From assembly GCA_016871055.1 (NCBI GenBank), contig VFZW01000024.1, positions 1 through 33,200 of the forward strand: DNA of 33,200 nucleotides, read 5' to 3'. Shown here in pieces: positions 16,830-33,200 of this stretch (its first letter is position 1; each line of letters opens with the position of its first letter). The translations under genes and the position numbers were made by a program. The notes under the pieces were generated by a model. The model saw only the letters and a program-made list of their open reading frames with translations. It was not told the DNA's origin and made no database searches. This stretch comes from Acidobacteriota bacterium (GTDB lineage Bacteria; Acidobacteriota; Terriglobia; Bryobacterales; Bryobacteraceae).

Positions 16830-16830
16830 C

Positions 16831-17100: not shown

Positions 17101-17117
17101 GTCTTTATTATCGCGCC

Positions 17118-18467
17118 CTACGCCAGCACCTGCTTAATCACATTCCCATGCACATCGGTCAGGCGGAAATCGCGCCCGGCGTAGCGGAACGTCAGCCGCG
17201 TGTGATCGATGCCGAGCAGATGAAGGATGGTCGCATTGAGGTCGTGCAGATGCGTCTTGTTCTCCACCGCCACTCCGTCGACATCGCAACGGCCGTAGCG
17301 CATGCCGCCCTTTACCGCGCCGCCGGACAGCCACATCGTATAGCCGCGGTTGTTGTGCTGGCGGCCGTCGCCGCCGGGGCCTTGCTCCCAACTGGAACGG
17401 CCGAACTCGCCGCCCCAAACGATGAGCGTATCCTTCCACAACCCGCGCTGTTTCAGATCCGTGATCAGCGCGCTGATGGGCTTGTCGATCGCCGCCGCGT
17501 TCGCCGTCATGCGCGCTTTGAGGCCGTTGTGATGATCCCATCCGCCGGTTGAAATTTCGATGAAGCGCACGCCGGCTTCGGCCATGCGGCGCGCGGCCAG
17601 ACACTGCGTGCCGAAGTCGCGCGTGGCGGCGTCGTTGAGGCCATAGGCATCCTTCATCGCTTGCGGCTCGTCGGCGATGCCGAGCACTTTTGGCACGGCG
17701 GCCTGCATGCGGAACGCGAGTTCGTAGGACTCGATCAGGCCTTCGAGTTCGTTGTCGGTCTGTGCCTTGTCGAGCATGCCGCGGTTCATCTCTTGAATGA
17801 GATCGATCTGCTTGCGTTGCTCGGCGGTGGTCATCTTCGTGTTGCGAATATTGGCGATGGGCGGCTGATTCGGCGCGATCGTGATGCGCGTGCCCTGATA
17901 GGTCGCCGGCAGAAACGCCGAACCGTATAGCGCCGCGCCTCCGATATTGGGCGGATTCAACGTGACGAAGCCAGGCAGATCGGAGTTCTCGGTGCCGCGG
18001 CCATAGACGGTCCATGCGCCGAGCGCGGGCCGCACGAAGGTGAAGCTGCCGGTGTGGAGGAAGATCGACGCCTGCGGATGCGCGGGCGAATCGGTGTGCA
18101 TCGCGTTGAGCAGGCACAAATCGTCGGCGTGTTTGGCCACATGCGGGAACGCTTCGGAAATCGGCAGGCCGCTCTGGCCGTGCTTGTTGTACTTGAACAC
18201 CGAACCGAGCAGATTGCCGCGGCTATTGCCGGTCTTTTTGCCGGCCGCCGTTTCGATCTCTTCGTTGTGATCGAACGTATCGTGCTGGCTGGGCGCGCCT
18301 TGCATGAACATGAAGATGACGCGCTTGACCTTGGGCTCAAAGTGCGGCTTCTTCGGCGCGAGCGGGTTTTGATATGACTTGGCCGCCTCCGCGGCCATGC
18401 CGGCCGCGGCGAGGTAGCCGAATCCGCAGGATGTTGTCTTCAAAAAATCGCGGCGGTTCTTAAACAT
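17118..18467 (-). CDS. DUF1501 protein with Tat signal
   Basis: The 449-aa product starts at ATG 18467. The Shine-Dalgarno AGGGGAG (18480-18474) lies six bases upstream, while the ATG at 18473 would directly abut it. The N-terminus MFKNRRDFLKTTSCGFGYLA is a twin-arginine signal. The body is alkaline-phosphatase-like in fold class (DUF1501, sulfatase relatives): VKRVIFMFMQGAPSQHDTFD near the start, GVRFIEISTGGWDHHN in the middle, and DTLIVWGGEFGRSSWEQG then GDGRQHNNRGYTMWLSGG toward the end. It is probably a folded, cofactor-bearing periplasmic protein. DUF1501 genes nearly always sit beside a DUF1549/DUF1553 gene, as here (12 bp apart). The biochemical role of the pair is unproven; polysaccharide or sulfated-polymer metabolism has been suggested. 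Confidence 0.92.
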   Translation of the reverse strand: MFKNRRDFLKTTSCGFGYLAAAGMAAEAAKSYQNPLAPKKPHFEPKVKRVIFMFMQGAPSQHDTFDHNEEIETAAGKKTGNSRGNLLGSVFKYNKHGQSGLPISEAFPHVAKHADDLCLLNAMHTDSPAHPQASIFLHTGSFTFVRPALGAWTVYGRGTENSDLPGFVTLNPPNIGGAALYGSAFLPATYQGTRITIAPNQPPIANIRNTKMTTAEQRKQIDLIQEMNRGMLDKAQTDNELEGLIESYELAFRMQAAVPKVLGIADEPQAMKDAYGLNDAATRDFGTQCLAARRMAEAGVRFIEISTGGWDHHNGLKARMTANAAAIDKPISALITDLKQRGLWKDTLIVWGGEFGRSSWEQGPGGDGRQHNNRGYTMWLSGGAVKGGMRYGRCDVDGVAVENKTHLHDLNATILHLLGIDHTRLTFRYAGRDFRLTDVHGNVIKQVLA

Positions 18468-18479
18468 GCTCATCTCCCC

Positions 18480-20849
<2,370 letters not shown>

Positions 20850-20908
20850 GGTTCCTCAGTTAGTTGAACCCTTTTCTGAATGAGAGAGTTGCTGCCTAGA
20901 TCATACAA

Positions 20909-20929
20909 CTTCGGCAAATGCAGCCGAAG
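20909..20929. terminator. Perfect 7-bp hairpin after sixA, overlapping a possible promoter
   Basis: CTTCGGC (20909-20915) pairs with GCCGAAG (20923-20929). It directly follows the sixA stop on the minus strand, with TTGTAT after it, a weak terminator signature. A minus-strand TATGAT (20905-20900) that could serve as the -10 box of the cytochrome/DUF1501 operon lies right next to it, so it may instead be an operator. Confidence 0.45.
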
Positions 20930-20930
20930 C

Positions 20931-21413
20931 CTATAGGGCGAGCTTCGGGGCCATCATCCACTTGAGGACCGCGCGCGGCCGGGCGCCGAATTCGAAGACG
21001 TCGATGCGAACGAGGGCGCCCTTCTTGAAATCGACGGCGAGTTCCGGCGCGGAAAGTAGATAGGCCATCATGCCGCTCATGTGCGGCTCGTGGCCGACCA
21101 AAAGCAGGCTGGGCTCTCCGCGCATAGCGCGGACTTCGGCCCAGGCTTCCGCCGGCGAGGCCATGGGCACAAGGGCGTTCGAGGGCACGAGCTTTTCGTC
21201 GTAGCCGAGCAGCTCAGCCGCCAGTTCCGCCGTTTGCCGTGCGCGAACGTAGGGGCTGGTGACGATCAGGCTTGGCGCAACACCCGCCGTTCTTGCGCGC
21301 TTCAATATCTCGCGCAGAGGCTTGGAACCCTCCGCGGTCAGTGCTCGCTCCGCGTCGGCGCTCCCGGGTTGGGCATCTTCGGCGATGCCATGCCGGAGGA
21401 GGTAAAGTTGCAT
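20931..21413 (-). CDS. sixA: Phosphohistidine phosphatase SixA
   Basis: This is a 160-aa member of the histidine phosphatase family, the usual short length of SixA. The catalytic RHG sits at residues 7-9 (MQLYLLRHGIAED) and the second histidine is His108 in LLVGHEPHMSG. Arg57/Arg59 in TSPYVRARQTAE complete the phosphate pocket. SixA removes phosphate from phosphohistidine on phosphotransfer proteins, acting in the cytoplasm. No signal peptide is present. It is divergent from the O-antigen ligase-like gene, with 47 bp between starts, and has no obvious partner kinase in the window. Confidence 0.9.
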   Translation of the reverse strand: MQLYLLRHGIAEDAQPGSADAERALTAEGSKPLREILKRARTAGVAPSLIVTSPYVRARQTAELAAELLGYDEKLVPSNALVPMASPAEAWAEVRAMRGEPSLLLVGHEPHMSGMMAYLLSAPELAVDFKKGALVRIDVFEFGARPRAVLKWMMAPKLAL

Positions 21414-21460
21414 GGGCTGTCGAAGTTGTTCTTATTCTGCCATACTCTTCTAGTTTCGGG

Positions 21461-22678
21461 ATGCAAACTTTTCTATGCCGGGAGAACGCTCCGGCACTCG
21501 CGGCTGGCGGCGCTCTGGCGCTCAGCGTCGTTTCGATTGCGGGTTCGCAGATCCTGCTTGGGCTGTCGATTGTACTGACGATTCGCCAGTGGCGGACGGC
21601 GGCGTATCCGCGCGGGGCTTATCTATTGGTACTGTTCGCGGCGCTCACGGTAGCCGCTGTGCTGGCCGCGCCGTCGCCAGCGGCGGGATTTCCGCAAATC
21701 AAGAAGTTCTTTGTTTACCTGATTGTTCCCTGCATTGCGGTGGCGTATTCCGGACCCGGGTTCGCGCGCGGCGTCTTCGCGGGAATCGGCGCGGGCGGCG
21801 GACTGTCGGCGGTTTGGGGCTTCATTCAGTACGCCCGCAAGTACAACGCGGCCGACACCGCGGGCGTGCCGTTCACGCAGTTCTATATCGACAACCGCAT
21901 CACGGGATTCATGAGCCATTGGATGACCTTTGGCGGTACGATGATGTGCGTTTCGTTGCTGGCCTCCGCGTATGTCCTGTTCCACAGGCCGGTCCGCTGG
22001 CGCATCGCGGCGCTCGCGCTGCTCGCCGCCGTCGCGATCAATCTGGCGTGGACGCGCGGCATCCTGATCGGCACACTCGCCGGCGGCTTGTATCTGATCT
22101 TCCGCTGGCGGCCGGCCTTCGTGCTGGCGACGCCGGTGCTGGCGATCGGGGCGTTCTTCGCACTGCCCGAAGCCGAAAAGGCGCGAATCGTTTCGATCGT
22201 CCGTCCGCGCGGCGAACTTGATTCGAACTCGCATCGCGTGGCGCTGTTCTTCACCGGCGTCGAGATGATCAAGGGCAATCCGCTGCTCGGCGTTGGGCCG
22301 GAACATATCAAGTACGAGTTCGAACGTTACGCGCCGGAGAGCGTGCCGAGGCCGGTTCCGCGGCACTGGTACATCGGGCATTTGCACAATGTCTACGTGC
22401 AGTTCGCGGCCGATCGCGGCATTCCGGCGATGCTGGCGATCATCGGATTTCTGATTTGGAATTTGTGGACAATCGCCCTAGCGCGCGGCGATGCCGGGAC
22501 GCGGTGGATGCTGCACGGCGTCGCGGCGTTTCTGGCCGGCGTGCTGGTCGCCGGCGTGTTTGAGCACAACCTCGCCGACAGCGAGATCCTGACGTTGACG
22601 CTTGGAATGCTGACGATCGGTGCGCGTCTAGCCTACGATTCGAGTACGACAACCGCCATCACCAACCCGGACGTATGA
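21461..22678 (+). CDS. O-antigen ligase/polymerase-like membrane protein (Wzy_C domain)
   Basis: The 405-aa polytopic membrane protein starts at ATG 21461; the upstream extension to 21272 is antisense to sixA and rejected. About ten hydrophobic helices are visible. The Wzy_C core begins near INLAWTRGILIGTLAGGLYL. The large periplasmic loop follows with the hallmark stretch GNPLLGVGPEHIKYEFE, then GHLHNVYVQFAADRGIPAML. Those features are typical of WaaL ligases and Wzy polymerases, which join lipid-linked glycans in the inner membrane. Ligase or polymerase cannot be decided from sequence by eye, and no glycosyltransferases are nearby. The 3' end overlaps acpS by 46 bp. Confidence 0.85.
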   Translation: MQTFLCRENAPALAAGGALALSVVSIAGSQILLGLSIVLTIRQWRTAAYPRGAYLLVLFAALTVAAVLAAPSPAAGFPQIKKFFVYLIVPCIAVAYSGPGFARGVFAGIGAGGGLSAVWGFIQYARKYNAADTAGVPFTQFYIDNRITGFMSHWMTFGGTMMCVSLLASAYVLFHRPVRWRIAALALLAAVAINLAWTRGILIGTLAGGLYLIFRWRPAFVLATPVLAIGAFFALPEAEKARIVSIVRPRGELDSNSHRVALFFTGVEMIKGNPLLGVGPEHIKYEFERYAPESVPRPVPRHWYIGHLHNVYVQFAADRGIPAMLAIIGFLIWNLWTIALARGDAGTRWMLHGVAAFLAGVLVAGVFEHNLADSEILTLTLGMLTIGARLAYDSSTTTAITNPDV

Positions 22679-23010
22679 GTGATCGTCAGATGAATTCGAT
22701 GTACGCCCAAGGCGTCGGCGCGCTGTTTGGCGACACCCGATAGGTGGAGCGTCGGTTTGCCGGATTCTTCGCGGCCGACGGCCAGATCCTTCCATGTGAT
22801 ACCGCCGGCGAGTCCGGTGCCGAGCGCCTTCATCCCCGCTTCTTTCGCGGCGAAGCGCCCGGCGAGCCTCTCGTCGGCGTTGGCCTTCGACATGGCATAG
22901 TCGATCTCGGCCTGCGTATAGACGCGATTTAGAAACCGCGCGCCGAAGCGTTCGCGCGAAGCCCGGATGCGCGGAACTTCCGCCAAATCGATGCCGAGGC
23001 CGAGGATCAT
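22633..23010 (-). CDS. acpS: Holo-[acyl-carrier-protein] synthase AcpS
   Basis: The 125-aa enzyme transfers 4'-phosphopantetheine from CoA to a serine of acyl carrier protein, an essential step for fatty-acid synthesis. Both metal-binding motifs are present: Asp8 in GLGIDLAEVPRI and Glu57 in FAAKEAGMKALGTG. The C-terminal HLTITHTSGLVMAVVV strand matches the family. Length is normal. The last 46 bp overlap the convergent ligase-like gene, and the start lies 30 bp from the divergent cbiM start, so any promoter here must be shared or lie inside cbiM. Confidence 0.94.
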   Translation of the reverse strand: MILGLGIDLAEVPRIRASRERFGARFLNRVYTQAEIDYAMSKANADERLAGRFAAKEAGMKALGTGLAGGITWKDLAVGREESGKPTLHLSGVAKQRADALGVHRIHLTITHTSGLVMAVVVLES

Positions 23011-23040
23011 TCCTCAATTATGAGCGGTAGAATAGGATCT

Positions 23041-23937
23041 GTGCATATCGCCGACGGAATCTTGTCCGCGCCGGTCTGGGCTGCCCTCGACGCGGCCGCG
23101 ATCCCTGCTATCGGCTTGGCCGCGCGGCGGACTCGCGTGGAGCACGCGCCGCTACTTGGAGTCATGGGCGCGTTTGTATTCGCGGCGCAGCGGATGAACT
23201 TTCCGGCGGGGCTTGGTACGAGCGGACACTTGTTGGGCGGCGCGCTGTTGGCGATGACGCTCGGCCCCGGCGCGGCGACGATCGTTCTTACGGCGATTCT
23301 GGTCTTGCAAACCTTGGTGTTTCAGGACGGCGGGATTTTAGCGCTGGGCGCCAATGTGTTCAACATGGCGCTGATCGGGGTTTGGGCGGCGTGGATTCCG
23401 TACCGGTTTCTGGCGCAAGGAAAGTGGAAAAACTTCGGCTACTTCGCGGCGGCTTTCCTATCGGTTCTCGCTTCGGCGGCGGCGGCGATGATCGAACTGC
23501 GCGTTTCGGGCGTAGCGCTGAATGGCGCGGTTGTTTCGATTTCCGCGGCGGTGTTTGTCACGACGGCGATCATCGAAGGGCTGATCACGGTTGCGGTCAT
23601 GCAGACGATCGAAAAAATGAATCCCGGCTGGCTGCAAACTCCCGACACCCGGCCGAGCCGGGCGATGGGTCTGCTGGCAGGCGCCGCAGTGTTGCTGATG
23701 GCCGTTGGCGTGTTGTTTATCTCCGGCGCGCCGGATGGACTGGAAGCGCTTGTCGCGCAGCTTGGTTTGGAGTCGCGGGAGGTCGCCTATTTTCAGGCGC
23801 CGATGGCCGAATACGAAGCGCGGATCGCGGGCGGCGATTGGAGCCGCAAGGCGCTGGCGGGATTGGCGGGGTTGGGAATGATCTACATACTCTGCGCGGG
23901 CGTCGGCCGGTTATTGGTACGGCAAAGGAGCGCATAA
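23041..23937 (+). CDS. cbiM: Co/Ni ECF transporter substrate-binding component, CbiM fused to a CbiN/PDGLE domain
   Basis: The start is placed at GTG 23041 because it yields MHIADGILS. In the CbiM/NikM family the N-terminal Met-His is structural: His2 binds the metal. Starting at ATG 23020 would bury this residue behind seven extra amino acids. AGGA lies at 23034-23037. The 298-aa product has about eight membrane helices and conserved CbiM segments: RMNFPAGLGTSGHLLGG and QDGGILALGANVFNMA. The C-terminal part, from about residue 225, contains APDGLEAL and one last helix, that is, a CbiN-like PDGLE domain fused to CbiM. It captures Co2+ or Ni2+ in the membrane and works with CbiQ and CbiO. Metal choice cannot be decided; no cobalamin genes or riboswitch lie in the window. 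Confidence 0.92.
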   Translation: MHIADGILSAPVWAALDAAAIPAIGLAARRTRVEHAPLLGVMGAFVFAAQRMNFPAGLGTSGHLLGGALLAMTLGPGAATIVLTAILVLQTLVFQDGGILALGANVFNMALIGVWAAWIPYRFLAQGKWKNFGYFAAAFLSVLASAAAAMIELRVSGVALNGAVVSISAAVFVTTAIIEGLITVAVMQTIEKMNPGWLQTPDTRPSRAMGLLAGAAVLLMAVGVLFISGAPDGLEALVAQLGLESREVAYFQAPMAEYEARIAGGDWSRKALAGLAGLGMIYILCAGVGRLLVRQRSA

Positions 23938-23938
23938 G

Positions 23939-24613
23939 TTGGGGCCGCTGGCTCGGCGGGATGCGCGCGCGAAGTTAGCGGCGGCGCTCGTCTTTTTGGT
24001 CTGCGTTGGAACGACGCCGGCGGGTAACTATCAGCGGATGGCGGCACTGGCGGCGGTCGCGATCGTTTGGATTGCCATCGCGCGCGCGGGATTGTTTCGA
24101 TCGCTCTTCCAGGCCTCGGCAATCTTGCCTTTTCCCTTGTCGTTTGGGTTGGTCAGTTGGTGGGTCAGCGGCGACCCCACGCTTGCCGTGGCGCTTGTGG
24201 TGCGGAGTTATCTGTCGGCATTAGTGGTTGTGCTGCTGATGAGCACGACCACGCTGGCCGACATCTTCCGGGGCTTGCAGTCGTTCGGAGCGCCGGCGGT
24301 TCTTGTGTTGGTCTTGCAGTCCCTGACCCGATATCTTCAGGTCGTCGTCGACCAGGGACTGCGGATGCGCCGCGCATCGATCAGCCGGTCCGGCAACACG
24401 GGCCGGCGTTATTCGCTCTGGCGGCGGGCCGGCGGGGCGCTTGCGGTCCTGTTCGGTAAATCGTATGGCCGGGCCGAGAACGTTCATCGGGCCATGCTGG
24501 CGCGGGGTTTTCAGGGGACATTCATCGCGCTGCGTCCGCATGCCTTGGAATGGCGGGATTTCGCGCTGACGGCTGTCGCGGCCGCGATGAGCGTGGGGGC
24601 GGCGTGGCGATGA
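23939..24613 (+). CDS. cbiQ: ECF transporter transmembrane component CbiQ (EcfT)
   Basis: A TTG start at 23939 is supported by the strong Shine-Dalgarno AAAGGAG at 23924-23930, eight bases upstream; the cbiM stop is one base before. The 224-aa membrane protein has about five helices and the coupling-helix signature AENVHRAMLARGFQG near residues 178-192, typical of EcfT proteins that transmit ATPase motion to the S component. The second ARG-like box is less clear (RMRRASISR). Its stop overlaps the cbiO start (ATGA), so the three genes form one translational unit. Confidence 0.9.
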   Translation: MGPLARRDARAKLAAALVFLVCVGTTPAGNYQRMAALAAVAIVWIAIARAGLFRSLFQASAILPFPLSFGLVSWWVSGDPTLAVALVVRSYLSALVVVLLMSTTTLADIFRGLQSFGAPAVLVLVLQSLTRYLQVVVDQGLRMRRASISRSGNTGRRYSLWRRAGGALAVLFGKSYGRAENVHRAMLARGFQGTFIALRPHALEWRDFALTAVAAAMSVGAAWR

Positions 24614-25296
24614 TCATCGAGGTCAAGGGGCTGAGTTATCGGTACTCCGACGGCACGGATGCGCTGCGCGGCGTCGACTTTCGAATGGAGGCGTCGGAGT
24701 CGGTTGCGTTGTTCGGCTCGAATGGCTCCGGCAAGACCACGTTCCTGCTCCATGTAGCCGGATTGCTGGAGGGCGAAGGATCGGTGCGCATCGCCGGGGA
24801 GCCTTTCACCCGATCGTCCGCACCGGCGCTGCGAGAAAAAGTCGGGTATGTGTTTCAGGACTCCGACGATCAACTGTTCATGCCGACTGTCTTGGAGGAC
24901 GTGGCGTTTGGACCGCTCCATCGCGGGATGGAGGCGAGAGAGGCCGAGAACCGCGCTCTCGAATTGCTGCGTCAGTTGGGTATTTCGGAACTCGCCGGCC
25001 GCGCGCCGTATCATCTGAGCGCGGGCGAGAAGAAGCGGGCGGCGCTCGCGGGCGTGCTGGCCATGCAACCTGAAATTCTTATCTTCGACGAGCCGACCAC
25101 GTTTCTGGATCCGCCGGGACAACGCGAGCTGGCACACTTACTTCTTGCGCTGCCGCAGGCGAAGTTGATCGCCACGCACGATGTCTGGTTCGCGCGTCAG
25201 GTGGCCAGCCGTGCGCTGTTCTTCGAGAAGGGCCGGGTCGTCGCCGATGGCCCTGTCGACGAAGTGGCCGCTCGTTTTGACTGGCGGTTGCACTGA
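24610..25296 (+). CDS. cbiO: ECF transporter ATPase CbiO
   Basis: The 228-aa ABC ATPase starts at ATG 24610, overlapping the cbiQ stop; a longer start at 24550 would lie inside cbiQ and is rejected. Motifs are Walker A GSNGSGKTT (about 38-46), the Q-loop in VGYVFQDSDDQLF, signature LSAGEKKRAALAG, Walker B ILIFDEPT and switch ATHD. All catalytic residues are present. It energises Co/Ni uptake by CbiMQ. With a single ATPase gene it would act as a homodimer, as in the RcCbiMNQO system. Confidence 0.94.
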   Translation: MIIEVKGLSYRYSDGTDALRGVDFRMEASESVALFGSNGSGKTTFLLHVAGLLEGEGSVRIAGEPFTRSSAPALREKVGYVFQDSDDQLFMPTVLEDVAFGPLHRGMEAREAENRALELLRQLGISELAGRAPYHLSAGEKKRAALAGVLAMQPEILIFDEPTTFLDPPGQRELAHLLLALPQAKLIATHDVWFARQVASRALFFEKGRVVADGPVDEVAARFDWRLH

Positions 25297-25338
25297 ACCA
25301 AGACGCTGGCGCGCGGGACGCTATCATAACGAAGGCGC

Positions 25339-26988
25339 ATGCCGAATCCCGTCGTCCATCAAGAAACGTACTTCTTCTTCCCATTCGTCATCGACAAGGA
25401 AGTTGTCGCCAGCGCGCATGGCGACTTCTGGCCGCCGCTGCGAAGTTGGATCGACGGGCTCGACGAATGGATTCGCTCGGAGAACTGCGCCACCGCTTCG
25501 CCGATCCGCACGAAGCTCGGCGGCTGGCGGCGCGCCAGCTACGAACGGTTCGATCTCGAGTCGCCCGCCTACCAGGACATGGTCTTCTTCCATCCCTTCG
25601 TGCGGCGCGTTTTCTTCGACACCAAGACCGGCGGTCAAGACACACTCATTCGCGTGTATGAGATTACCGCGCCCGAAGGCGGCCCCGTGTTGTGGCACGC
25701 CGAAGACCTTCGCAAACGCTCCTGCACCGTCGCGGTAAAAGACCTGCGGCTCTTCCTGTTCGCCAACGGCGTGGGCATTCTTTCGATCGGCGTCGAGCGT
25801 TCGGACTGCTCGGTACGCGAAGCGCTGTGGATGAACGAGATGATGCGCAAGGTCTACCCGACCAGCGGCCGCCAGCGCCGCGAAGGCCGCATCCCGTCTT
25901 ACTCGCGGTTAGTGCACGAAGGCGACATCCTGGCCGAGGAGACCTTCGAATCGGGCGCGATCGTGCAGTTTCAACCACCGCTGTCGAAGCTTGTGCAATC
26001 GCTGCTCTACTTCCTGAATTACGACGCCAACGAGTACGAGCAGATCTTCGACGAGCGCATGATTCCCTACACCTACGTCACGATCGCGCGCGATTTCGGC
26101 GAAGGCGAAAAAATTCAGATGCTGTTGAGCCGGTTGCTTTATGTCGACCGCGATGGCGAAGGATACCGCTACGATCCCGCATTCACTCGCGAGCAGATGA
26201 AAGAGCACTGCTACACGCGCTGGGCGCACGAGGGCACCTACTACGGCTTCACGCGTTATTCGAACGTCACGCTCGCTTACGAGCAAGGCACCCGCGGGCT
26301 TCATCTCGCCTCCGAGGGCGACCTCATCCAGCGCATGTTCCAAGGCCGCTACTACCTCATGGCGATCGTCGCGCTCTTCTACCGCGTCACGCTCCTCGAC
26401 TTCGCCGAGAACGTCGCGCTCGTTTCGCGCCGGCTCTATCACGATCTTGAGCTCGGAACGCTGCAACATCAAAACATGGGCATCGCCACTGATCTTCGCA
26501 GCGACTTTCTCAACTTCTGCAACTACTGGCACTTCGACGAACTCGCCAACAAAGACGAGGAGATCGAACACTTCATGATGCAGTGCAAGGCCTATCGCGT
26601 TGAAGAACTTCGCGCGCAAGTGGAGCAGGAGATCGAAAAGATGAATGCCGCGATCAACGAGTACAACCAGTTCCGGTCGACCGAAGCCGTCAACCGCCTA
26701 GCGATGCTGTCGACCATCTTCGGCGCGGGCGCGGTGATCACCGGGTTTTTCGGCATGAACTTCGGCAGCGAGTTTGCACGTTATCTGTTCAATCCCGACG
26801 GTGGCACGCACCATATTCACGACGCTGCTGTGTGGAGCGTGTCGATCATCGCGCTGACAATCGTCTTTCTCGGCGTGTGGCTCGTGGCGACCAATTGGAA
26901 CGACTACCGCGGCATTCTCCGCTTGCGCGGTTCGCGGCGCTACCGGCTTCACCGCTGGTTTAGCCTGCGCTCAGGCGGAAATCATTGA
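25339..26988 (+). CDS. CorA-like GMN-motif membrane protein with enlarged N-terminal region
   Basis: The 549-aa protein has the CorA-type end. A long stalk helix (EELRAQVEQEIEKMNAAINE, about 422-441) runs into TM1 (LAMLSTIFGAGAVITGFF) with the metal-selecting GMN at 472-474. A short loop and TM2 (VWSVSIIALTIVFLGVWLV) follow, then a basic cytoplasmic tail. The GMN motif and two-helix layout are family hallmarks of Mg/Co channels. The cytoplasmic part is about 430 residues against about 250-290 in ordinary CorA, and its first half (FFFPFVIDKEVVASAHGDFW; VFFHPFVRRVFFD) is unfamiliar to me. It lies 42 bp after cbiO, so it could belong to the same metal-transport unit. Function as an ion channel is inferred; a regulator or divergent transporter is possible. 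Confidence 0.75.
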   Translation: MPNPVVHQETYFFFPFVIDKEVVASAHGDFWPPLRSWIDGLDEWIRSENCATASPIRTKLGGWRRASYERFDLESPAYQDMVFFHPFVRRVFFDTKTGGQDTLIRVYEITAPEGGPVLWHAEDLRKRSCTVAVKDLRLFLFANGVGILSIGVERSDCSVREALWMNEMMRKVYPTSGRQRREGRIPSYSRLVHEGDILAEETFESGAIVQFQPPLSKLVQSLLYFLNYDANEYEQIFDERMIPYTYVTIARDFGEGEKIQMLLSRLLYVDRDGEGYRYDPAFTREQMKEHCYTRWAHEGTYYGFTRYSNVTLAYEQGTRGLHLASEGDLIQRMFQGRYYLMAIVALFYRVTLLDFAENVALVSRRLYHDLELGTLQHQNMGIATDLRSDFLNFCNYWHFDELANKDEEIEHFMMQCKAYRVEELRAQVEQEIEKMNAAINEYNQFRSTEAVNRLAMLSTIFGAGAVITGFFGMNFGSEFARYLFNPDGGTHHIHDAAVWSVSIIALTIVFLGVWLVATNWNDYRGILRLRGSRRYRLHRWFSLRSGGNH

Positions 26989-28554
26989 TCACTTCGCCCG
27001 CGCGAACCGGGGATTTTTCCGCGAACCGTCGATCATAATTTTCGAATACGTTCCGGCGCCGGCCTTGGAAAAAAACGGATCCACCGGCTTCAGGGCCCAT
27101 CGTTTCCAGCCGGTTTGCGTCTGCGAGACTCGCGCCTTCAACTTCACGTCGCCCTTGAATCCCAAGTGTTCGCTGTCGAGATTGTAATCCCCTTCGAGCG
27201 CCATGTCGGCGCCAGGAATCGCAAAGGTCAGATAGTCGAAGTGAATCTGCTCGTTCGCCATTTGGAACCGTCCGCTGAGGTTCGACACGACTTGGTCGAT
27301 TTCTTCGTTCTTCGGCTGTCCCTGCGCCTGGCGGCTCATCTGATCGATCTTGTCCTGAATGGCCGACTTCAAGAACTTTCCGTCCGCGATCGTGAACGTA
27401 CCGTTCAGTTTCAACTTCTCGATCACCTTGCCCGTGAGCGGCGGCACCAACACGCGCGCCTTCAAGTCGATCATCCCCGTCATGAACGTCTGGTCGCCGC
27501 GCATCGCCAGGCGCAGTACGTCCTCCAAGTGTCCGCGCTTGATGACAACATCCAAGTCCGTCGTGCGGCGCGTGTCGCCGTCGTGTTTGAGAACTCCGCC
27601 GGTCACCACCATCGCCGTCTTGCCCAGCCGCGCGTGGACCGGCGTCAACTTCGTGTTTCCATTCGTGCCGTCGATTTCGGCATTAAACCGCGCATGCAGC
27701 GGCAGCTTGTTTCCCGAGATCTTGAGCGCGAAGTCGGGCACCGTGGCTTCGCCCTTGGCGCGAAGTGCGTTCAGGCGGCCTTCGAACTTGCCCGTTGATC
27801 GCAGCGTGCCGCGAATCGCGGAGAATACCGAGAGATCGGCGTGTTCGAACAGGTAGTCGCCCGAGAGCGGCGTCTCGCCCGGTTCCTCCTTGTTCCACGG
27901 ACCGAAGCTGCCGCTGGCCGTCACATCGCCCGGCGGCTTGGCGTTGCGAATGCTGGCTTCATATCGGAAGGGCACGTTGATCCCGGCCTGTTGCAATTGG
28001 ACTTTTTTCAACTCGAACTGTAGCGGCTGCTTCGTCTTGTCTTTGGGCAGAATCGTTAGCTTCGCGTCGCCGATCAGGACCTCCTCTATCACGACGTTTG
28101 ACTTCGGCGCGCCCGTTATTTGCACCTGCCCCGTTTGCAGCGCGGGCCGCTCTCCCTTGGGCGGAATCACAATCTCGACGCCTTCCAGCACCACGCGCTT
28201 GACGTTCTTGTCGCGGTCGAACAGCTTGCCCAGATCCAACTCAAAGCGCATCGATTTCATGCGCAATAGCGGATCGGCGCCTTTGCGGACCGAGATGCCG
28301 CTGCCCGTAACGTTCGCCATCGTGCCCACGCCCTTGGTCAGATATAGTTTGATCGGCGAGAATCCCGGGAGTTCGACGTTGAACTGCTCCAACTCCACAT
28401 CGGCGCCGTATCGATCGCGCATGTAACCCACCGCTTGCTCGCGAATGTACGGAGAGATTTTGTGGATGTAGTTCGACGCGAGATAAAAAAGCACACCGGC
28501 GCCGATAGCCGGAACCGCTACGATCCCTCCGATCCAGAGTAACTTCCGCTTCAT
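26989..28554 (-). CDS. AsmA-family envelope protein
   Basis: This 521-aa protein has an N-terminal membrane anchor (LLWIGGIVAVPAIGAGVLFYL) and a long beta-rich periplasmic body. The AsmA pattern is visible early (SPYIREQAVGYMRDRYG, then ADVELEQFNVELPGF) and late (KLNGTFTIADGKFLKSAIQD; LSGRFQMANEQIHFDYLTF; DMALEGDYNLDSEHLGFKGD), as in AsmA-like C-terminal domains. AsmA proteins bridge or influence lipid transport between inner and outer membranes. The ATG overlaps the xylanase stop (ATGA), so it is translated from that message. It is convergent with the CorA-like gene with no gap between stops. Confidence 0.85.
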   Translation of the reverse strand: MKRKLLWIGGIVAVPAIGAGVLFYLASNYIHKISPYIREQAVGYMRDRYGADVELEQFNVELPGFSPIKLYLTKGVGTMANVTGSGISVRKGADPLLRMKSMRFELDLGKLFDRDKNVKRVVLEGVEIVIPPKGERPALQTGQVQITGAPKSNVVIEEVLIGDAKLTILPKDKTKQPLQFELKKVQLQQAGINVPFRYEASIRNAKPPGDVTASGSFGPWNKEEPGETPLSGDYLFEHADLSVFSAIRGTLRSTGKFEGRLNALRAKGEATVPDFALKISGNKLPLHARFNAEIDGTNGNTKLTPVHARLGKTAMVVTGGVLKHDGDTRRTTDLDVVIKRGHLEDVLRLAMRGDQTFMTGMIDLKARVLVPPLTGKVIEKLKLNGTFTIADGKFLKSAIQDKIDQMSRQAQGQPKNEEIDQVVSNLSGRFQMANEQIHFDYLTFAIPGADMALEGDYNLDSEHLGFKGDVKLKARVSQTQTGWKRWALKPVDPFFSKAGAGTYSKIMIDGSRKNPRFARAK

Positions 28555-30260
28555 GGAGTGATATCGATTATGACGCCATCGGCGCCCATTTTCGCCGTCA
28601 CCGTCTTTGATCGATCGCCCGCGCGGGCCGTTACCTCATATTCGCCATGAAACCCGCGAACGATTGCCGCGCCGTTCTTGTCCGATTTCAGGTCCGCGTT
28701 CGTCCACCACTGCTTATAGACCATCTCGCGCCACACATCGAAGTTTGGCTTCGTCGACCAATCGCGGCGGAACATCGCACAGCGAGGCCTCCAGTGGCGG
28801 CCCTCCCAGAAGCCCCACATCAGGAACGCGTTCGCCGATGGGTGGCTGAAAAACGTGATCAGCAGATCGCGCGTGAATCGGGCCTGCAGCGCCTCGTCGG
28901 CTGTGTCGAAGTCGAACTCGGTGATTTCGATCGGCTTGTTGAAGACCGCGAAGCGATCGAGAATGCGGAGCATCTGCTCGGGCGGCGTGGGCCCGCTGAA
29001 ATGTCCTTGCATGCCGATGCCATCCACGGGCGTGCCGAGCGAATCGAGATACGAAATGGTCTGGTAGTAGTGATTGCGGTGCGCCAAGTTGCCGCCGCCG
29101 GCGGACAGGATGTTGTAGTCGTTGATGTACAACTTGGCCGCCGGATCGCCCCTTTGCGCGAGACGGAACCACGCCGACATCTCCTCATCGCCGAGGATGC
29201 GTTGGAGGTCGCGATTCGTGTACGGCTCGTTCAACACATCCCAGTCTTCGAGTTCGCCCGCGGTCGCCCGCGTCACTTCCGAAATGTGATCGCGCACGCG
29301 CGCACGCAACGCCTCCGTGTTGTTTTCCAGTGTCCGCACGCTCGCCGGCAGATATTGCCAGCCCGGCCACACGAGGTTGTGTCCGCGAATCCGGGAGATT
29401 CCGTTCTGCTTCAGCCACCGTATCCCATCGAGCGGCCTCTGGCGGTTCTGTTCCCACTGCGGCCACTTCAAATCGTTCTCGAACACAACCATGTTGAAGT
29501 TCGCCAACACAGCTTCGCGATAACGCTGACTATCGGTGCTCGTGCCGAGCAGTTGATCGGCGGCCACGGCGGTGCCCCAGCCAAACGCGTGCCGCTTCAT
29601 GCGCACCTCGACCGCGGCGTCTTCGATCGGCTTGCCGTTCTCGTCGCGAACGTTCACCGTTAGATCGGCCTTGCGCAACTTATCGATACGCTCCACGGCG
29701 GCTTTGCGCCACTCGGCGTCGTGGTCCGCTCCTTCGTAGAACGGATCGACGCCAACGTCGGCGGGCGTCGCCTCCGTGCCGTAATTGATCAGCGTGATGT
29801 TCGACACTTCGACGGTCTGCACCTGCTGGCCCATCCAGAAATCGACGAAGTAGTCGTTGCCCTGATACGTCTCCGTCATCCGAAATGCGATTTTGACGGC
29901 GCGCGATTGCGCGGTCGACAAAACCGGCTGCGCGTACGACTTCGTGAATGGCGAGACCGCCTGCTCGACGTTCAGGCGCGTCGAACACTCCTCGGGCGCA
30001 AGGCACCGGATGTTGAACGCCGCTACCACCAGATCGTTGCGCTGCGCCGGAACCGGAATGCGAGCGCGGATTCGCATCGCCCACTCGGTCGACGCCGGCG
30101 CGTTTGGCGGAATGGAGATCGTCGTCAGTCGCCACGTGTCGCCGTCGCGCTCGGCTCGGCCGGCGGTCTCGCCCGATGTCGGGCCGCTGTAGACGAAGAC
30201 CGGCCGCAGATCGGTTTGCGCGAAGGCGGCCATCGCCGACACTAAGAACAGAGATCGCAT
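28551..30260 (-). CDS. Secreted GH10 endo-1,4-beta-xylanase
   Basis: The 569-aa enzyme has signal peptide MRSLFLVSAMAAFA cut before Gln15. A beta-sandwich, carbohydrate-binding-like region at about 16-190 follows (for example AFRMTETYQGNDYFVDFWMG). The GH10 barrel spans about 195-530: FGWGTAVAADQL, GHNLVWPGW at 293-301, acid/base Glu345 in WDVLNEPY, YINDYN at 378-383, GMQGHF at 416-421, and nucleophile Glu448 in EITEFDFD. All catalytic residues are present. It should cut xylan chains outside the cytoplasm. The ATG overlaps the stop of the lactamase-fold gene by one base (TAATG), and its own stop overlaps the AsmA gene, so three unrelated functions share one translated chain. Confidence 0.93.
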   Translation of the reverse strand: MRSLFLVSAMAAFAQTDLRPVFVYSGPTSGETAGRAERDGDTWRLTTISIPPNAPASTEWAMRIRARIPVPAQRNDLVVAAFNIRCLAPEECSTRLNVEQAVSPFTKSYAQPVLSTAQSRAVKIAFRMTETYQGNDYFVDFWMGQQVQTVEVSNITLINYGTEATPADVGVDPFYEGADHDAEWRKAAVERIDKLRKADLTVNVRDENGKPIEDAAVEVRMKRHAFGWGTAVAADQLLGTSTDSQRYREAVLANFNMVVFENDLKWPQWEQNRQRPLDGIRWLKQNGISRIRGHNLVWPGWQYLPASVRTLENNTEALRARVRDHISEVTRATAGELEDWDVLNEPYTNRDLQRILGDEEMSAWFRLAQRGDPAAKLYINDYNILSAGGGNLAHRNHYYQTISYLDSLGTPVDGIGMQGHFSGPTPPEQMLRILDRFAVFNKPIEITEFDFDTADEALQARFTRDLLITFFSHPSANAFLMWGFWEGRHWRPRCAMFRRDWSTKPNFDVWREMVYKQWWTNADLKSDKNGAAIVRGFHGEYEVTARAGDRSKTVTAKMGADGVIIDITP

Positions 30261-31069
30261 TACGGATTGGCGCGCTTCTGCCGCTCGAATTCCTCGTTGA
30301 ACGCTTTTCCCTTCTCGTCAACGTAGGCCTTGTAGCCCGCGGGATCGATGAACGGATTCGGCCCTTTGCCGATCCTGGCGTACTTGCCCTCGCCGTCATA
30401 GAACTGCGGGTGCGCGCCGAGAAAGATGTCGCACTTCAGCGCACGCAGTTTCTTGAAGCTGTTGCGATAGTCGTCGGCGATCAACGGATAACTCGCGTTC
30501 TTCCACAACAGATAACCGGGGTTGTAGCCGACGCTGCAAACAATCACGACGTCGTAACTCTTACCACCTTCGCTTGCCTTCATCGACCATGTCGTGCAGC
30601 CGTTCGTATGCCCCGCCGTGAGATGCGCCTTTAGGGTCGTGCCGCCGAGTTTGACCTCGTCGCCGTCTTTCAGAACCTTGTCGATCGGATGCGGCTCGCC
30701 GAGCGCCATGCGCCGCAACAGCGGGACATCCTGCTCGAGCGCCATCACCTGCGCGCCGCCGGTGAGCCCTTTCAGCATCGCATCGGCCTCCATGTGATCG
30801 CGGTGCGCATGGCTGCCGAGGATGATTTTGATATCGGAGATCTTGAAGCCGAGCTTTTCGATATTCGCGCGCAGCTGCGGCACCGTGGATTCGAAATCGC
30901 TGTTGATCAAAATATGCCCGGCGCTCGTGGTGATCAGAAACGTCGACAACTCCGCGGTGCCAATTGAGTAGACGTTGCCGATAACCTTGTGCGCGGGGAA
31001 CGGCTTGTTCCATTCGCGTTGGGCGAAAAGCGAGGCGCTAACGGCGAGAAGGAGAATTGCACGGGCCAT
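30260..31069 (-). CDS. Exported metallo-beta-lactamase fold hydrolase, subclass B3 type
   Basis: The 269-aa protein has signal peptide MARAILLLAVSASLFA cut before Gln17. The zinc ligands fit subclass B3: HAHRDH at 87-92 (His116, His118, Asp120, His121 in standard numbering), His154 in AGHTNGCTTW, and His220 in GAHPQFYD. The DGG-type loop is replaced by INSDFE. B3 enzymes hydrolyse penicillins and carbapenems, and soil bacteria carry many; an acyl-homoserine or other ester substrate is possible. It starts 47 bp after the asparaginase gene stops on the same strand, and ends in the xylanase start codon. The activity is inferred from motifs only. Confidence 0.9.
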   Translation of the reverse strand: MARAILLLAVSASLFAQREWNKPFPAHKVIGNVYSIGTAELSTFLITTSAGHILINSDFESTVPQLRANIEKLGFKISDIKIILGSHAHRDHMEADAMLKGLTGGAQVMALEQDVPLLRRMALGEPHPIDKVLKDGDEVKLGGTTLKAHLTAGHTNGCTTWSMKASEGGKSYDVVIVCSVGYNPGYLLWKNASYPLIADDYRNSFKKLRALKCDIFLGAHPQFYDGEGKYARIGKGPNPFIDPAGYKAYVDEKGKAFNEEFERQKRANP

Positions 31070-31116
31070 TGGTTGATTATGGCGCGGTTCCAGTCGCGAG
31101 GGCCACCGCCCGAACG

Positions 31117-32181
31117 CTACTTCCGTTCGTACAGATACACGCAGTTTTCCAGGCGGCTATTCCCACTGCCATCGTTAACCGCAAACTGCCGCGATACAAA
31201 GCCGGTCCGCCGCAACTGCCCGTTCCACAGCGATCCGCCGGCGTAAGTGCCATCTTTCCGCAATGCGTAGAAGTTGATATCAAACTTCGTCAGCCGCGCC
31301 TTGTCGTCATTGAAGTTGCGCGAAATGCGTTTCAACACATCGAGCACCGCGTCCTTCGGCGTCATGCCGTGCCGCATGTTTTCGACGATCGAATGCGCGC
31401 CGGCCACGCGAATGTTCTCCTCGCCGCGCCCGGTGGATCCCGCCGCGCCCACGTCCTGATCGACATAGAGGCCCGCGCCGATAATCGGCGAATCGCCCAC
31501 GCGGCCAGGTATCTTCCACGCCAACCCGCTGGTCGTCGTGCAGCCGCTCATCTCGCCTTTCGCGTTCAGCGCCAGACAGTTGATCGTCCCTGTTGGCGGG
31601 TTCTTGGCGCGGCCCCACGCATACGCGAGCAACTCATCGGACGCCTCGGGAAAAAGCCGGCGCAGCACCATCGGGGCATCGACGCCGTCGGTCCAATTCG
31701 GCAGGTGCGACTTCTTCCACGCCAGCCACGCCAGCCGCGATTTCTCCGTCAGCAGGTTCTCTTCCGCGAACCCCATCGACTTCGCGAACCGCAGCGCGCC
31801 TTCGCCAACCAGCATGATGTGGTCGGTCTCAGTCATCACAAGCTTCGCGACCTTCGACGGATTCTTGATGTTCCGAATCGACGCCACGCTGCCCGCGCGG
31901 CGTGACGGCCCGTGCATCACCGAGGCGTCCAGTTCGACGACGCCCTCTTCATTCGGCAGCCCGCCATAGCCCACCGAATCGTCGTTCGGATCGTTCTCGT
32001 TTACGTTGACGCCGGCGATGACGGCGTCGAGCGTGTCCTTGTTCGCGCGCATATGCGCCATCGCGATATTGCAACACTCAATGCCATTCGCGCTTGAGAT
32101 GACGATGTTCTTCGCGCCGCCCGGCTGCGCCGCCGCGGGCATCGCCGCGGCTCCCACGATCCAACTTCTCCGGCTCCACAT
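31117..32181 (-). CDS. Exported glycosylasparaginase/isoaspartyl-peptidase-like Ntn hydrolase
   Basis: The 354-aa protein carries an Arg-rich, Tat-like signal MWSRRSWIVGAAAMPAAA cut before Gln19. The Ntn-hydrolase body matches N4-(beta-N-acetylglucosaminyl)-L-asparaginase. VGYGGLPNEEGVVELDA comes early; the self-cleavage site GTIN puts the nucleophile at Thr199; and GRVGDSPIIGAGLYVD is the conserved substrate segment. Autoproteolysis before Thr199 would give alpha and beta chains. The residue before the nucleophile is Gly rather than the Asp of human AGA, and Asn replaces the following Gly of HDTIG, as I recall for many bacterial members. It would hydrolyse Asn-linked sugars or isoaspartyl peptides in the periplasm. 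It starts 29 bp from the divergent FxLYD-like gene. Confidence 0.9.
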   Translation of the reverse strand: MWSRRSWIVGAAAMPAAAQPGGAKNIVISSANGIECCNIAMAHMRANKDTLDAVIAGVNVNENDPNDDSVGYGGLPNEEGVVELDASVMHGPSRRAGSVASIRNIKNPSKVAKLVMTETDHIMLVGEGALRFAKSMGFAEENLLTEKSRLAWLAWKKSHLPNWTDGVDAPMVLRRLFPEASDELLAYAWGRAKNPPTGTINCLALNAKGEMSGCTTTSGLAWKIPGRVGDSPIIGAGLYVDQDVGAAGSTGRGEENIRVAGAHSIVENMRHGMTPKDAVLDVLKRISRNFNDDKARLTKFDINFYALRKDGTYAGGSLWNGQLRRTGFVSRQFAVNDGSGNSRLENCVYLYERK

Positions 32182-32210
32182 AGCGAGGGACCTCCGTTAC
32201 ACTGTTGAGA

Positions 32211-32615
32211 ATGTCCACGGCTTTCCGGTTCGGCGCCGCGTTGGTGCTGATTGCAACATTGTTGTATCCGCAGGCGAAGAAAAGCAAGAAGCCCAAAGCG
32301 CCGGATGCGGTTCTCGAGAAGATCGAAATCAAGCGCGAGGGCGAAATCATCCTGCTCGACGGCGTGATTCGTAACACGTCCATCAAGCCAATCCGAGGCA
32401 TGGTGCTGCACTTCGAGTTCTTCGCGCCGAACAAGAAATCGCTGGCGGTCATGAACGGGCCGATCGAATCGGCCATCGTCGAACCGGACGAGCAAGCCGA
32501 GTTCCGGCTGCAAGTCAAAGCCCCGACGACCGCCGTTTCGCTCGTCGTTGAAGCGCGTGACAGAGATCAAAAAGACCTGGTGATCGACAAAAACGGGCCC
32601 TATCCGATCGAATAG
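32211..32615 (+). CDS. Small exported FxLYD-like protein
   Basis: The start is ATG 32211; TTG 32205 is in frame but adds only two residues. The 134-aa product has a hydrophobic leader (FGAALVLIATLLYP) and a lysine-rich linker (KKSKKPKAPD). A beta-sandwich follows at about 33-125 (REGEIILLDGVIRNTSIKPI; GMVLHFEFFAPNKKSL; EPDEQAEFRLQVKAP). The pattern of a strand, NTS, a glycine turn, then V-L-F-FFA resembles FxLYD domains. Role unknown; such domains are usually extracellular. It is 24 bp before the cyclophilin gene, so probably co-transcribed. Confidence 0.7.
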   Translation: MSTAFRFGAALVLIATLLYPQAKKSKKPKAPDAVLEKIEIKREGEIILLDGVIRNTSIKPIRGMVLHFEFFAPNKKSLAVMNGPIESAIVEPDEQAEFRLQVKAPTTAVSLVVEARDRDQKDLVIDKNGPYPIE

Positions 32616-32639
32616 CGACGGTACAATGAAAACAACGTC

Positions 32640-33200
32640 ATGAAGTCTCGCTACCTACTGGCCGCTCTAATGCTGCCGTCTCTTCTGCAAGGCCAGTCGG
32701 CAAATCCGACGGTCCGTTTCACTACCAGCAATTGGGGCGACATCGACGTCGAACTCTTTGCCGACACCGCACCTCGAACTGTGGCGAACTTCTTGAACTA
32801 TGTGCGCCGCGGAGACTACAACAACACATTCATCCATAGAGCTGTGTCCGTCGGCATCAGTGTCATACAGGGCGGTGGTTTCACTATGAAAGGAAGTACT
32901 TTCGCTGAGATAAAGTCCGATCCGCCGATTGCTGATGAATTTCGTACGCCAAACACCCGTGGAACCATCGCGATGGCGAAGACGAGCCAGCCGAACTCTG
33001 CAACCAACCAGTGGTTCTTCAATGTCGCGAACAACTCGTCGAGTCTCGACCGGCAAAATTTTTCGGTTTTCGGTCGAATCATTAATCCGGGCGGGCTGGC
33101 GGCAATGAACGATATATGGAACCTCCCCAGATTCGCCATCGGCCCAGGTTTTGAAGGTACCCCAATGGTGAATTTCCAGCCAGGTGTCACGACGGTTACC
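32640..33200 (+). CDS. Cyclophilin-type peptidyl-prolyl cis-trans isomerase, partial (runs off the end)
   Basis: The frame opens at ATG 32640 and stays open for 187 codons to the window edge. The leader MKSRYLLAALMLPSLLQG suggests export. The cyclophilin core is clear: TAPRTVANFLNYVRRGDYNN, TFIHRAV with the catalytic-pocket Arg, IQGGGFTM, GTIAMAK, PNSATNQWFFNVANN, and FSVFGRI. Missing residues were not noticed in the visible part. It assists folding in the periplasm by isomerising Xaa-Pro bonds. The C-terminus, and any extra domain after the core, lies outside the window. Base composition is somewhat less GC-rich than that of its neighbours. Confidence 0.92.
   Translation, partial: MKSRYLLAALMLPSLLQGQSANPTVRFTTSNWGDIDVELFADTAPRTVANFLNYVRRGDYNNTFIHRAVSVGISVIQGGGFTMKGSTFAEIKSDPPIADEFRTPNTRGTIAMAKTSQPNSATNQWFFNVANNSSSLDRQNFSVFGRIINPGGLAAMNDIWNLPRFAIGPGFEGTPMVNFQPGVTTVT

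What the first reader, a model, noticed from the sequence alone, without database searches (positions are those of the whole stretch)
25339..26988. CorA-like protein with about 430-residue cytoplasmic region
GMN at 472-474 and the two-helix end are plain, but the front half is much larger than in known CorA, ZntB or Mrs2 and has aromatic-rich segments I do not recognise. It may be an undescribed CorA branch with an added sensor or enzyme-like domain.
Basis: partly seen in the sequence, partly recalled or inferred. Interest (0 to 1): 0.55.

Follow-up and report, generated by a model that had tools for sequence, protein, structure and literature searches.

The report
CRISPR-type CorA channel without CRISPR
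This acidobacterial gene encodes a membrane-channel-like protein of the kind that some CRISPR systems use to halt infected cells, but here it sits alone, away from CRISPR genes, so it may be a separately used version of that channel whose trigger is not known.

Summary
In detail: window 25339-26988 (+) encodes 549 aa with GMN at 472-474 and one predicted helix (421-473) joining stalk and TM1. The large front half is not undescribed: PADLOC's CorA models cover residues 48-516 (E 2.6e-65), residues 1-336 alone score 1e-38, and four ordinary-length CorA proteins match only the models' C-terminal end. A CorA from a type III-B CRISPR locus scores far higher on the same model. So this is a relative of the SAM-AMP-type CRISPR CorA effector. 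What is new is the setting: in 52 related loci (605 kb) no array, cas or NrN match was found; the relatives form one clade (100/100) and occur in 75 of 200 sampled genomes of the family. R170, D238 and R240, in motifs matching the mutated SAM-AMP-site pairs of B. fragilis CorA, are invariant in 43 of 43 rows and six of six CRISPR-linked CorAs; three CRISPR-free proteobacterial relatives keep only R240. Presence does not track the family's near-universal Csm/Cas10 module. Best reading: a ligand-gated pentameric channel used outside CRISPR; ligand, gating and pentamer are inferred. The main rival is a metal transporter, since this genome shows no other CorA and no MgtE.

The parts
25339..26988 (+). 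Stand-alone large CorA protein, 549 aa (stop included)
25339..26346 (+). Residues 1-336: cytosolic front domain, homologous to the front domain of type III CRISPR CorA effectors
   Evidence: PADLOC PDLC01174 E 1e-38 with this part alone; hhalign 97% with CRISPR III-B CorA; AlphaFold2 pLDDT 82, pTM 0.85
25846..25851 (+). R170-K171 (motif R-K-x-Y-P), aligned with the R-R-x-Y-P motif of two CRISPR III-B CorAs
   Evidence: alignments; both invariant in 43 of 43 rows; link to B. fragilis R152-R153 (PMC10600005) inferred by motif and order
26050..26061 (+). D238-E239-R240-M241, aligned with the D-D-R-M motif of two CRISPR III-B CorAs
   Evidence: alignments; D238 and R240 in 43 of 43 rows, position 239 E in 40 and D in 3; link to B. 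fragilis D219-D220 (PMC10600005) inferred by motif and order
26347..26985 (+). Residues 337-549: CorA module (membrane-proximal helices, stalk, two TM helices)
   Evidence: Pfam CorA 420-515; fold matches to CorA over 337-518
26599..26757 (+). Continuous stalk-TM1 helix, residues 421-473
26752..26760 (+). GMN motif, residues 472-474, invariant in 43 of 43 rows
26809..26892 (+). TM2 helix, residues 491-518
23020..25296 (+). cbiM-cbiQ-cbiO (ECF cobalt/nickel transporter) directly upstream, 42 nt before the CorA gene; among the fetched loci this order was seen only in L001, L002 and L079 (the window's genome and a 98% identical one)

Best explanation
The gene encodes a chromosomal, CRISPR-free member of the large-CorA family whose CRISPR-linked members include the SAM-AMP-activated effectors of type III systems. 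Shown here: the front domain is homologous to that of CRISPR CorA; the back half is a CorA module with stalk, two TM helices and GMN; R170, D238 and R240 of the proposed ligand site are kept; the acidobacterial proteins form one clade; and no array, cas or NrN match lies in the 52 loci examined. Inferred: the protein is a pentamer; its front domain binds a small adenylated nucleotide or a related metabolite between subunits; binding opens the TM pore and lets ions through, slowing or arresting the cell. The ligand and its maker are unknown. The family's near-universal Csm/Cas10 module is not supported as the maker.
For: PADLOC PDLC01174 E 2.6e-65 over 48-516 and PDLC01043 3.6e-55. Residues 1-336 alone 1e-38, while 4 of 4 ordinary-length CorA proteins (325-388 aa, taken as canonical by length) match only the models' C-terminal end with at most 28 bits. 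The CorA part of the Haliscomenobacter NrN-CorA fusion, beside annotated Cas10, Cmr3, Cmr4 and Cmr6, scores 8.9e-125 on the same model. hhalign of front domains with two III-B CorAs 97%, E 1e-10, against 0.1-0.6% for 3 shuffled controls. R170, D238 and R240 occur in 43 of 43 acidobacterial rows and 6 of 6 CRISPR-linked CorAs, while 3 of 3 proteobacterial CRISPR-free relatives keep R240 but not R170 or D238 (CRISPR links). 0 of 52 acidobacterial loci (605 kb) has an array or a hit to 13 cas/NrN references; the same searches find arrays in L054, L102 and L161, NrN in L054, and Cas10 plus RAMP genes in L137 and L138. One clade at 100/100. G024 carries both kinds: a III-D locus with NrN, CorA and Cas10 and, on another contig, the stand-alone CorA.
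Against: No ligand, pore or phenotype was measured. G000 shows no other PF01544 protein and no MgtE, so a transport role cannot be dismissed. The gene follows cbiMQO in this lineage. GMN is intact, which fits an ion channel of either kind. The second members of the two site pairs differ: K171 for R, and mostly E239 for D. The B. fragilis CorA sequence was not held, so the match to R152-R153 and D219-D220 rests on motif and order; the authors themselves could not exclude that those mutations act through quaternary structure. Front-domain homology alone does not single out CRISPR effectors: a proteobacterial set of three CRISPR-free members plus L054 also matches (91%, 303 columns). CorA-linked CRISPR loci usually carry a SAM-AMP-degrading enzyme; NrN was found in 2 of 22 genomes searched and not in G000. 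The array/cas scan sees at most about 6 kb on each side and used no Cas1, Cas2 or Cas6 reference.
Confidence: 0.6

Rival explanations
1. An ordinary divalent-cation channel (Mg2+, Co2+ or Ni2+) whose enlarged front domain only regulates opening by metal or metabolite. It is a housekeeping transporter that happens to share its sensor domain with CRISPR effectors.
For: GMN and the two-helix end are intact. It is the only PF01544 match in G000 and no MgtE was found there. It follows cbiMQO with a 42-nt gap in the window's lineage.
Against: Long CorA does not simply replace canonical CorA: canonical-type PF01544 matches occur in 12 of 75 genomes with it and 28 of 125 without it (Fisher p 0.36), and 97 of 125 genomes show neither. 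cbiMQO adjacency is not seen in the other fetched loci. The front domain matches CRISPR-type CorA models, not the canonical CorA profile.
Confidence: 0.25
2. A trans-acting effector of the Csm/Cas10 module that nearly all sampled genomes of the family carry at another chromosomal site; the short Cas10 makes the messenger that opens this CorA.
For: G000 has the short Cas10 with GGDD near a contig end, and Csm2-5 follow it in most fetched relatives. 69 of 75 CorA-positive genomes have the short Cas10.
Against: 116 of 125 CorA-negative genomes have it too (Fisher p 1.0). CorA is kept where GGDD is altered: 5 of 19 CorA-positive against 3 of 21 CorA-negative genomes, plus G003 and G004 in the window's own genus. 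Six CorA-positive genomes lack the short Cas10, among them the near-complete G400, where no Cas1, NrN or PF22335 match was found either.
Confidence: 0.1
3. A former CRISPR effector that lost its locus and is drifting toward loss.
For: Copies in G005 and G011 of the window's genus have an in-frame stop, and some other copies are frame-broken.
Against: 97 invariant positions over 43 rows, and matches in 26 of 76 genera, most of them full length.
Confidence: 0.03

Closest known systems
Type III CRISPR-associated CorA effector (B. fragilis Cmr CorA, PMC10600005; PADLOC PDLC01174, PDLC01043)
   Same: Homologous front domain, CorA-like TM end, R-[RK]-x-Y-P and D-[DE]-R-M motifs.
   Different: No CRISPR array, cas or NrN match beside it; forms its own clade; K171 and mostly E239 in place of R and D.
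Canonical CorA / ZntB / Mrs2 channels (PF01544)
   Same: GMN, stalk-TM1 helix, TM2; fold match over 337-518.
   Different: Pfam covers only 420-515; NCBIfam CorA 13.4 bits against a cut-off of 200.75; the front half has no match to the canonical profiles.
Proteobacterial CRISPR-free large CorAs (Azospirillum, Vitreoscilla, Ferrovum)
   Same: Same overall architecture; no cas gene or array in the stretches fetched.
   Different: Lack R170 and D238 of the site; in the tree they join the CRISPR-linked CorAs of G024 and L054, not the acidobacterial clade.

Membership tests
Type III CRISPR CorA effector family (sequence family) | Homologous cytosolic front domain | tested here: met
   PADLOC 1e-38 with residues 1-336 alone; four ordinary-length CorA controls do not match in this part; hhalign 97%
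Type III CRISPR CorA effector family (sequence family) | C-terminal CorA-like TM module | tested here: met
   Pfam CorA above cut-off; stalk-TM1 helix and TM2 in the model
Type III CRISPR CorA effector family (sequence family) | Conserved residue pairs of the proposed SAM-AMP site | tested here: inconclusive
   R170, D238 and R240 kept; second pair members are K171 and mostly E239; B. fragilis CorA itself was not held, mapping by motif and order
Type III CRISPR CorA effector (as a CRISPR component) | Encoded in a type III CRISPR-Cas locus | tested here: not met
   the genes named around it in the window are not cas genes, no direct repeats in 16000-33200; no array, cas or NrN match in 52 related loci
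Type III CRISPR CorA effector (as a CRISPR component) | SAM-AMP-degrading partner (NrN, DEDD or lyase) | tested here: inconclusive
   NrN model: none in G000, 2 of 22 genomes overall; DEDD and lyase not searched
Type III CRISPR CorA effector (as a CRISPR component) | Binds SAM-AMP | not testable with these tools
   needs purified protein
Canonical CorA magnesium transporter | Whole-length match to the canonical family | tested here: not met
   PF01544 only 420-515; TIGR00383 13.4 bits, cut-off 200.75
Canonical CorA magnesium transporter | GMN motif and two TM helices | tested here: met
Canonical CorA magnesium transporter | Pentamer with a funnel | not testable with these tools
   only monomers could be predicted
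Trans effector of the family's Csm/Cas10 module | Presence follows that of the short Cas10 | tested here: not met
   69 of 75 against 116 of 125, p 1.0

The most novel reading that the evidence does not exclude
Acidobacteria use a SAM-AMP-like second messenger outside CRISPR: an unidentified enzyme makes the adenylated nucleotide under some stress and this stand-alone CorA opens in response. CRISPR type III systems would then have taken up a pre-existing signalling channel; the tree shows CRISPR-linked and CRISPR-free CorAs interleaved but, being unrooted, fits departure from CRISPR as well.
Probability: 0.2. Interest if true: 0.8.

Novelty: new variant of a known kind. Interest (0 to 1): 0.55.

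Why it matters
In the passages I read of four papers (PMC10600005, PMC11229360, PMC12669027, PMC12255297; [quoted passage not shown] the listings of searches showed no paper on CRISPR-free members. Two older surveys that may bear on this, recalled as Shmakov 2018 and Shah 2019, were not held. A CRISPR-free clade that keeps key residues of the proposed ligand site lets one ask what such channels sense without detection of phage RNA, and whether CRISPR borrowed them. One genome (G024) holds both kinds, a natural comparison. It also warns that defence-gene models such as PADLOC's CorA will label chromosomal genes that are in no CRISPR locus.

Tried and rejected
Enzyme-like front domain: no Pfam or NCBIfam match there at E up to 1, no PDB sequence relative, and no trustworthy fold match for the domain alone (best Foldseek E 0.05; best Z 4.4, rmsd 4.9, 177 aligned, arginine kinase McsB). 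Fold search of the whole model is weakly specific: CorA leads Foldseek (E 1e-4), but in the VIA list CorA (Z 8.3, rmsd 10.4, 170 aligned) is hardly above helical bundles of other proteins, such as the GAT domain of GGA1 (Z 8.1, rmsd 3.5, 101 aligned).

Csm-module link: tested by co-occurrence and by the GGDD state, not supported. I labelled G417 as CorA-positive in script 83; it is CorA-negative, so I recounted intact GGDD as 14 of 19 and 18 of 21. The 40 genomes were picked by me from the listed matches, one per genus except genus g11 with two, not drawn at random. PF22335 is an imperfect test for Cas10: it rang on a GGDEF protein in G024 and missed the III-D Cas10 there. So 'no Cas10' in G400 rests on PF22335, the short-Cas10 profile, no Cas1 and no NrN, and a divergent Cas10 could still be missed.

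Conserved operon partner: none found across the fetched loci; synteny is by subclade. Viral copies: one scan, 48 pattern stretches, none a relative. Plasmid copies close to P0001: none, only weak matches to Arcobacter CorA on three plasmid records. Rfam in window 20000-33200: none at gathering score, so no cobalamin riboswitch was found before cbiM. Canonical CorA replacement pattern: absent. The tree has no outgroup and long branches; which state (CRISPR or stand-alone) is ancestral is open. In both trees L054 was put in the proteobacterial group before its CRISPR array was found. Rows left out: Paenibacillus L055 and G346 from the second tree for very long branches, G342 as identical to L012; L011 and L045 (frame-broken) from the alignments, and L002, L003, L006, L008, L029, L043, L046 and L052 from A1 as near copies, broken or cut. 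The Paenibacillus front domain did not match at all (0.7%).

Full report
WHAT IS THERE. Window 25339-26988 (+) is a 549-aa ORF with GMN at 472-474. Pfam CorA matches only 420-515 (E 9.5e-9, above its cut-off); the NCBIfam CorA model gives 13.4 bits against 200.75. No PDB chain is related by sequence. Upstream, 42 nt away, is cbiO of a cbiM-cbiQ-cbiO set; downstream on the other strand is a gene with only weak, sub-cut-off similarity to AsmA/YhdP, then GH10, a B3 metallo-beta-lactamase and an asparaginase-type gene.

FAMILY. In alignment A1 42 homologues are 48-74% identical to P0001; 97 positions are invariant, 59 of them in residues 1-336. In the window's genus 19 of 19 genomes match, among own plus 60 relatives 23 of 61. 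A profile finds it in 75 of 200 sampled genomes of the family (60 of 141 good ones; 26 of 76 genera). With the CRISPR-type CorA model, 9 of 297 sampled genomes of the phylum match. Two of these (G069, G078) are CRISPR-linked: Cas10 and RAMP homologues lie beside CorA. One (G346) is a weak match. The other six show no cas match in the fetched stretches (G173, G256, G271, G342, G247; G000: window).

THE FRONT HALF. PADLOC's PDLC01174 matches P0001 over 48-516 (E 2.6e-65) and PDLC01043 over 72-517 (3.6e-55). With residues 1-336 alone PDLC01174 gives 1e-38, whereas four ordinary-length CorA proteins (325-388 aa) match only the models' C-terminal end (13-28 bits). PADLOC calls these models only 'CorA-like'; that PDLC01174 fits CRISPR CorA is shown by the Haliscomenobacter plasmid gene, an NrN-CorA fusion followed by Cmr1 (PADLOC), Cas10/Cmr2, Cmr3, Cmr4, Cmr6 and, further on, Cas1 and Cas2, which scores 8.9e-125. 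Profile comparison of front domains with two CRISPR III-B CorAs gives 97% and 289 columns; three column-shuffled controls give 0.1-0.6%. The other comparisons were: two further CRISPR-linked CorAs 92% (175 columns), the proteobacterial set (three CRISPR-free plus L054) 91% (303 columns), Paenibacillus 0.7%. So the domain is a property of the wider large-CorA family, CRISPR-linked or not. AlphaFold2 predicts it alone with pLDDT 82 and pTM 0.85; Foldseek and VIA find no trustworthy PDB match. In the full model one helix spans 421-473 and a second 491-518.

LIGAND SITE. PMC10600005 (passages read) reports that CorA of the B. fragilis Cmr system binds SAM-AMP, that it was modelled as a pentamer, and that mutating R152-R153 or D219-D220, conserved at a domain interface, abolishes immunity; the authors note that altered quaternary structure cannot be excluded. 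I did not hold that sequence. In Haliscomenobacter and Arcobacter CRISPR CorA the motifs R-R-x-Y-P and D-D-R-M lie in the right order; in P0001 these columns hold R170-K171-x-Y-P and D238-E239-R240-M241. R170, K171, D238 and R240 are present in 43 of 43 acidobacterial rows; position 239 is E in 40 and D in 3. R170, D238 and R240 are also present in six CRISPR-linked CorAs: Haliscomenobacter, Arcobacter, G069, G078, G024 and L054. L054, first taken for stand-alone, has a five-repeat array and an NrN-like gene. Three CRISPR-free proteobacterial relatives (Azospirillum, Vitreoscilla, Ferrovum) have G in place of R170 and Y or F in place of D238, while R240 stays.

SETTING. In 52 acidobacterial loci (605 kb; up to about 6 kb on each side of the gene) there is no array and no hit to 13 cas/NrN reference proteins, which include no Cas1, Cas2 or Cas6. 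The same searches find arrays in L054, L102 and L161 and NrN in L054 and Cas10 plus RAMP genes in L137 and L138; no array was found in the CRISPR-linked L137, L138 and L214, whose stretches may not reach one. No neighbour is shared across the loci; the cbiMQO order appears only in L001, L002 and L079, and metK-ahcY-tig lie upstream in one subclade. The tree puts all 19 acidobacterial rows in one clade (100/100). Among the other rows, Haliscomenobacter, Arcobacter, G069 and G078 join weakly (73/43), and the CRISPR-linked G024 and L054 stand with, and just outside, the three CRISPR-free proteobacterial CorAs (100/99 for these five). It is unrooted and has long branches.

IS IT A TRANS EFFECTOR? 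Nearly all sampled genomes of the family carry a short Cas10 (185 of 200); in 18 of the 20 fetched loci that hold it, homologues of Csm2, Csm3, Csm4 and Csm5 were all found with it. CorA presence is independent of it: 69 of 75 against 116 of 125, Fisher p 1.0. GGDD is intact in 14 of 19 CorA-positive and 18 of 21 CorA-negative genomes that I picked, almost always one per genus. G003 and G004 of the window's genus have GGYD and GGHD and keep CorA. G400, whose match starts at the same coordinate as in isolate F-183 (AP025252.1; compared by hand), has CorA but no short Cas10, PF22335, Cas1 or NrN match. G024 is not such a case: it holds a separate III-D locus with NrN, CRISPR CorA and Cas10 that PF22335 missed.

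IS IT A METAL TRANSPORTER? It is the only PF01544 match in G000 (96% complete) and no MgtE was found; other Mg2+ transporters were not searched. Yet canonical-type CorA matches are found in 12 of 75 genomes with, and 28 of 125 without, the long CorA (p 0.36), so it is not a plain substitute.

VERDICT. Shown: homology to CRISPR CorA effectors over nearly the whole length, CRISPR-free setting within the stretches seen, one clade, kept site residues. Inferred: pentamer, ligand gating, adenylate ligand, pore opening. New variant of a known kind; most novel reading: SAM-AMP-like signalling outside CRISPR. Papers: PMC10600005, PMC11229360, PMC12669027 and PMC12255297 were seen as passages; the others only as search listings.

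Noticed in passing
L126:6205-7614, L140:5258-9957 and loci L141-L160: A type III-A-like module (short Cas10/Csm1 of about 430-500 aa, Csm2, Csm3, Csm4, Csm5) is near-universal in the family: short Cas10 in 185 of 200 genomes, beside an rluA-type gene in eight fetched loci of the window's genus. Of 20 genomes searched for Cas1, 10 had none; 9 of those 10 carry the short Cas10. No direct repeats beside it in L126 and L140. Pfam found palm2 and Csm1_B but no HD domain in L126.
   Followed up: partly
L156, L160, L153, L154, L159 and, in L173-L212, eight genomes: The GGDD motif of this short Cas10 is altered in 5 of 15 aligned and 8 of 40 fetched copies, for example GGYD, GGHD, GGDE, GSDD, AGDD, GEDD and GGND, with the rest of the protein kept, as if the module has a use without the cyclase.
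   Followed up: partly
L214:7065-14998 and L215:3058-6144: G024 has a III-D locus with NrN, CRISPR CorA and a Cas10 that the Pfam palm model missed, besides a Cas9 gene and the separate stand-alone CorA.
   Followed up: partly
L007:2242-5943 and the same genes in L008 and L010; further off in L009 and L011; L031:43-1206: metK (SAM synthetase), ahcY (SAH hydrolase) and tig lie upstream of the CorA gene, same strand, in one subclade of the window's genus; metK also lies some 4.8 kb away on the other strand in L031 (Pfam run on L007 and L031 only). Possibly chance synteny.
   Followed up: partly
L054:4699-10425: Rhodospirillales MAG: CRISPR CorA with an NrN-like gene and a 5-repeat array; other neighbours look like Cas2, a reverse transcriptase and DrmB-type proteins by eye (recalled, not searched).
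   Followed up: partly
L056:401-1321 and L061:4199-5119: A gene that looks like polyphosphate kinase 2 (recalled, not searched) is directly upstream of the large CorA in both Ferrovum loci.
   Followed up: no
window 30260-31069 (-): Subclass B3 metallo-beta-lactamase, above NCBIfam's cut-off (272.7 bits against 240), between GH10 and an asparaginase-type gene.
   Followed up: no
genome G000: No canonical CorA and no MgtE found in the window's genome; its magnesium uptake route is unknown. 97 of 125 sampled family genomes without the long CorA show no canonical CorA match either.
   Followed up: partly
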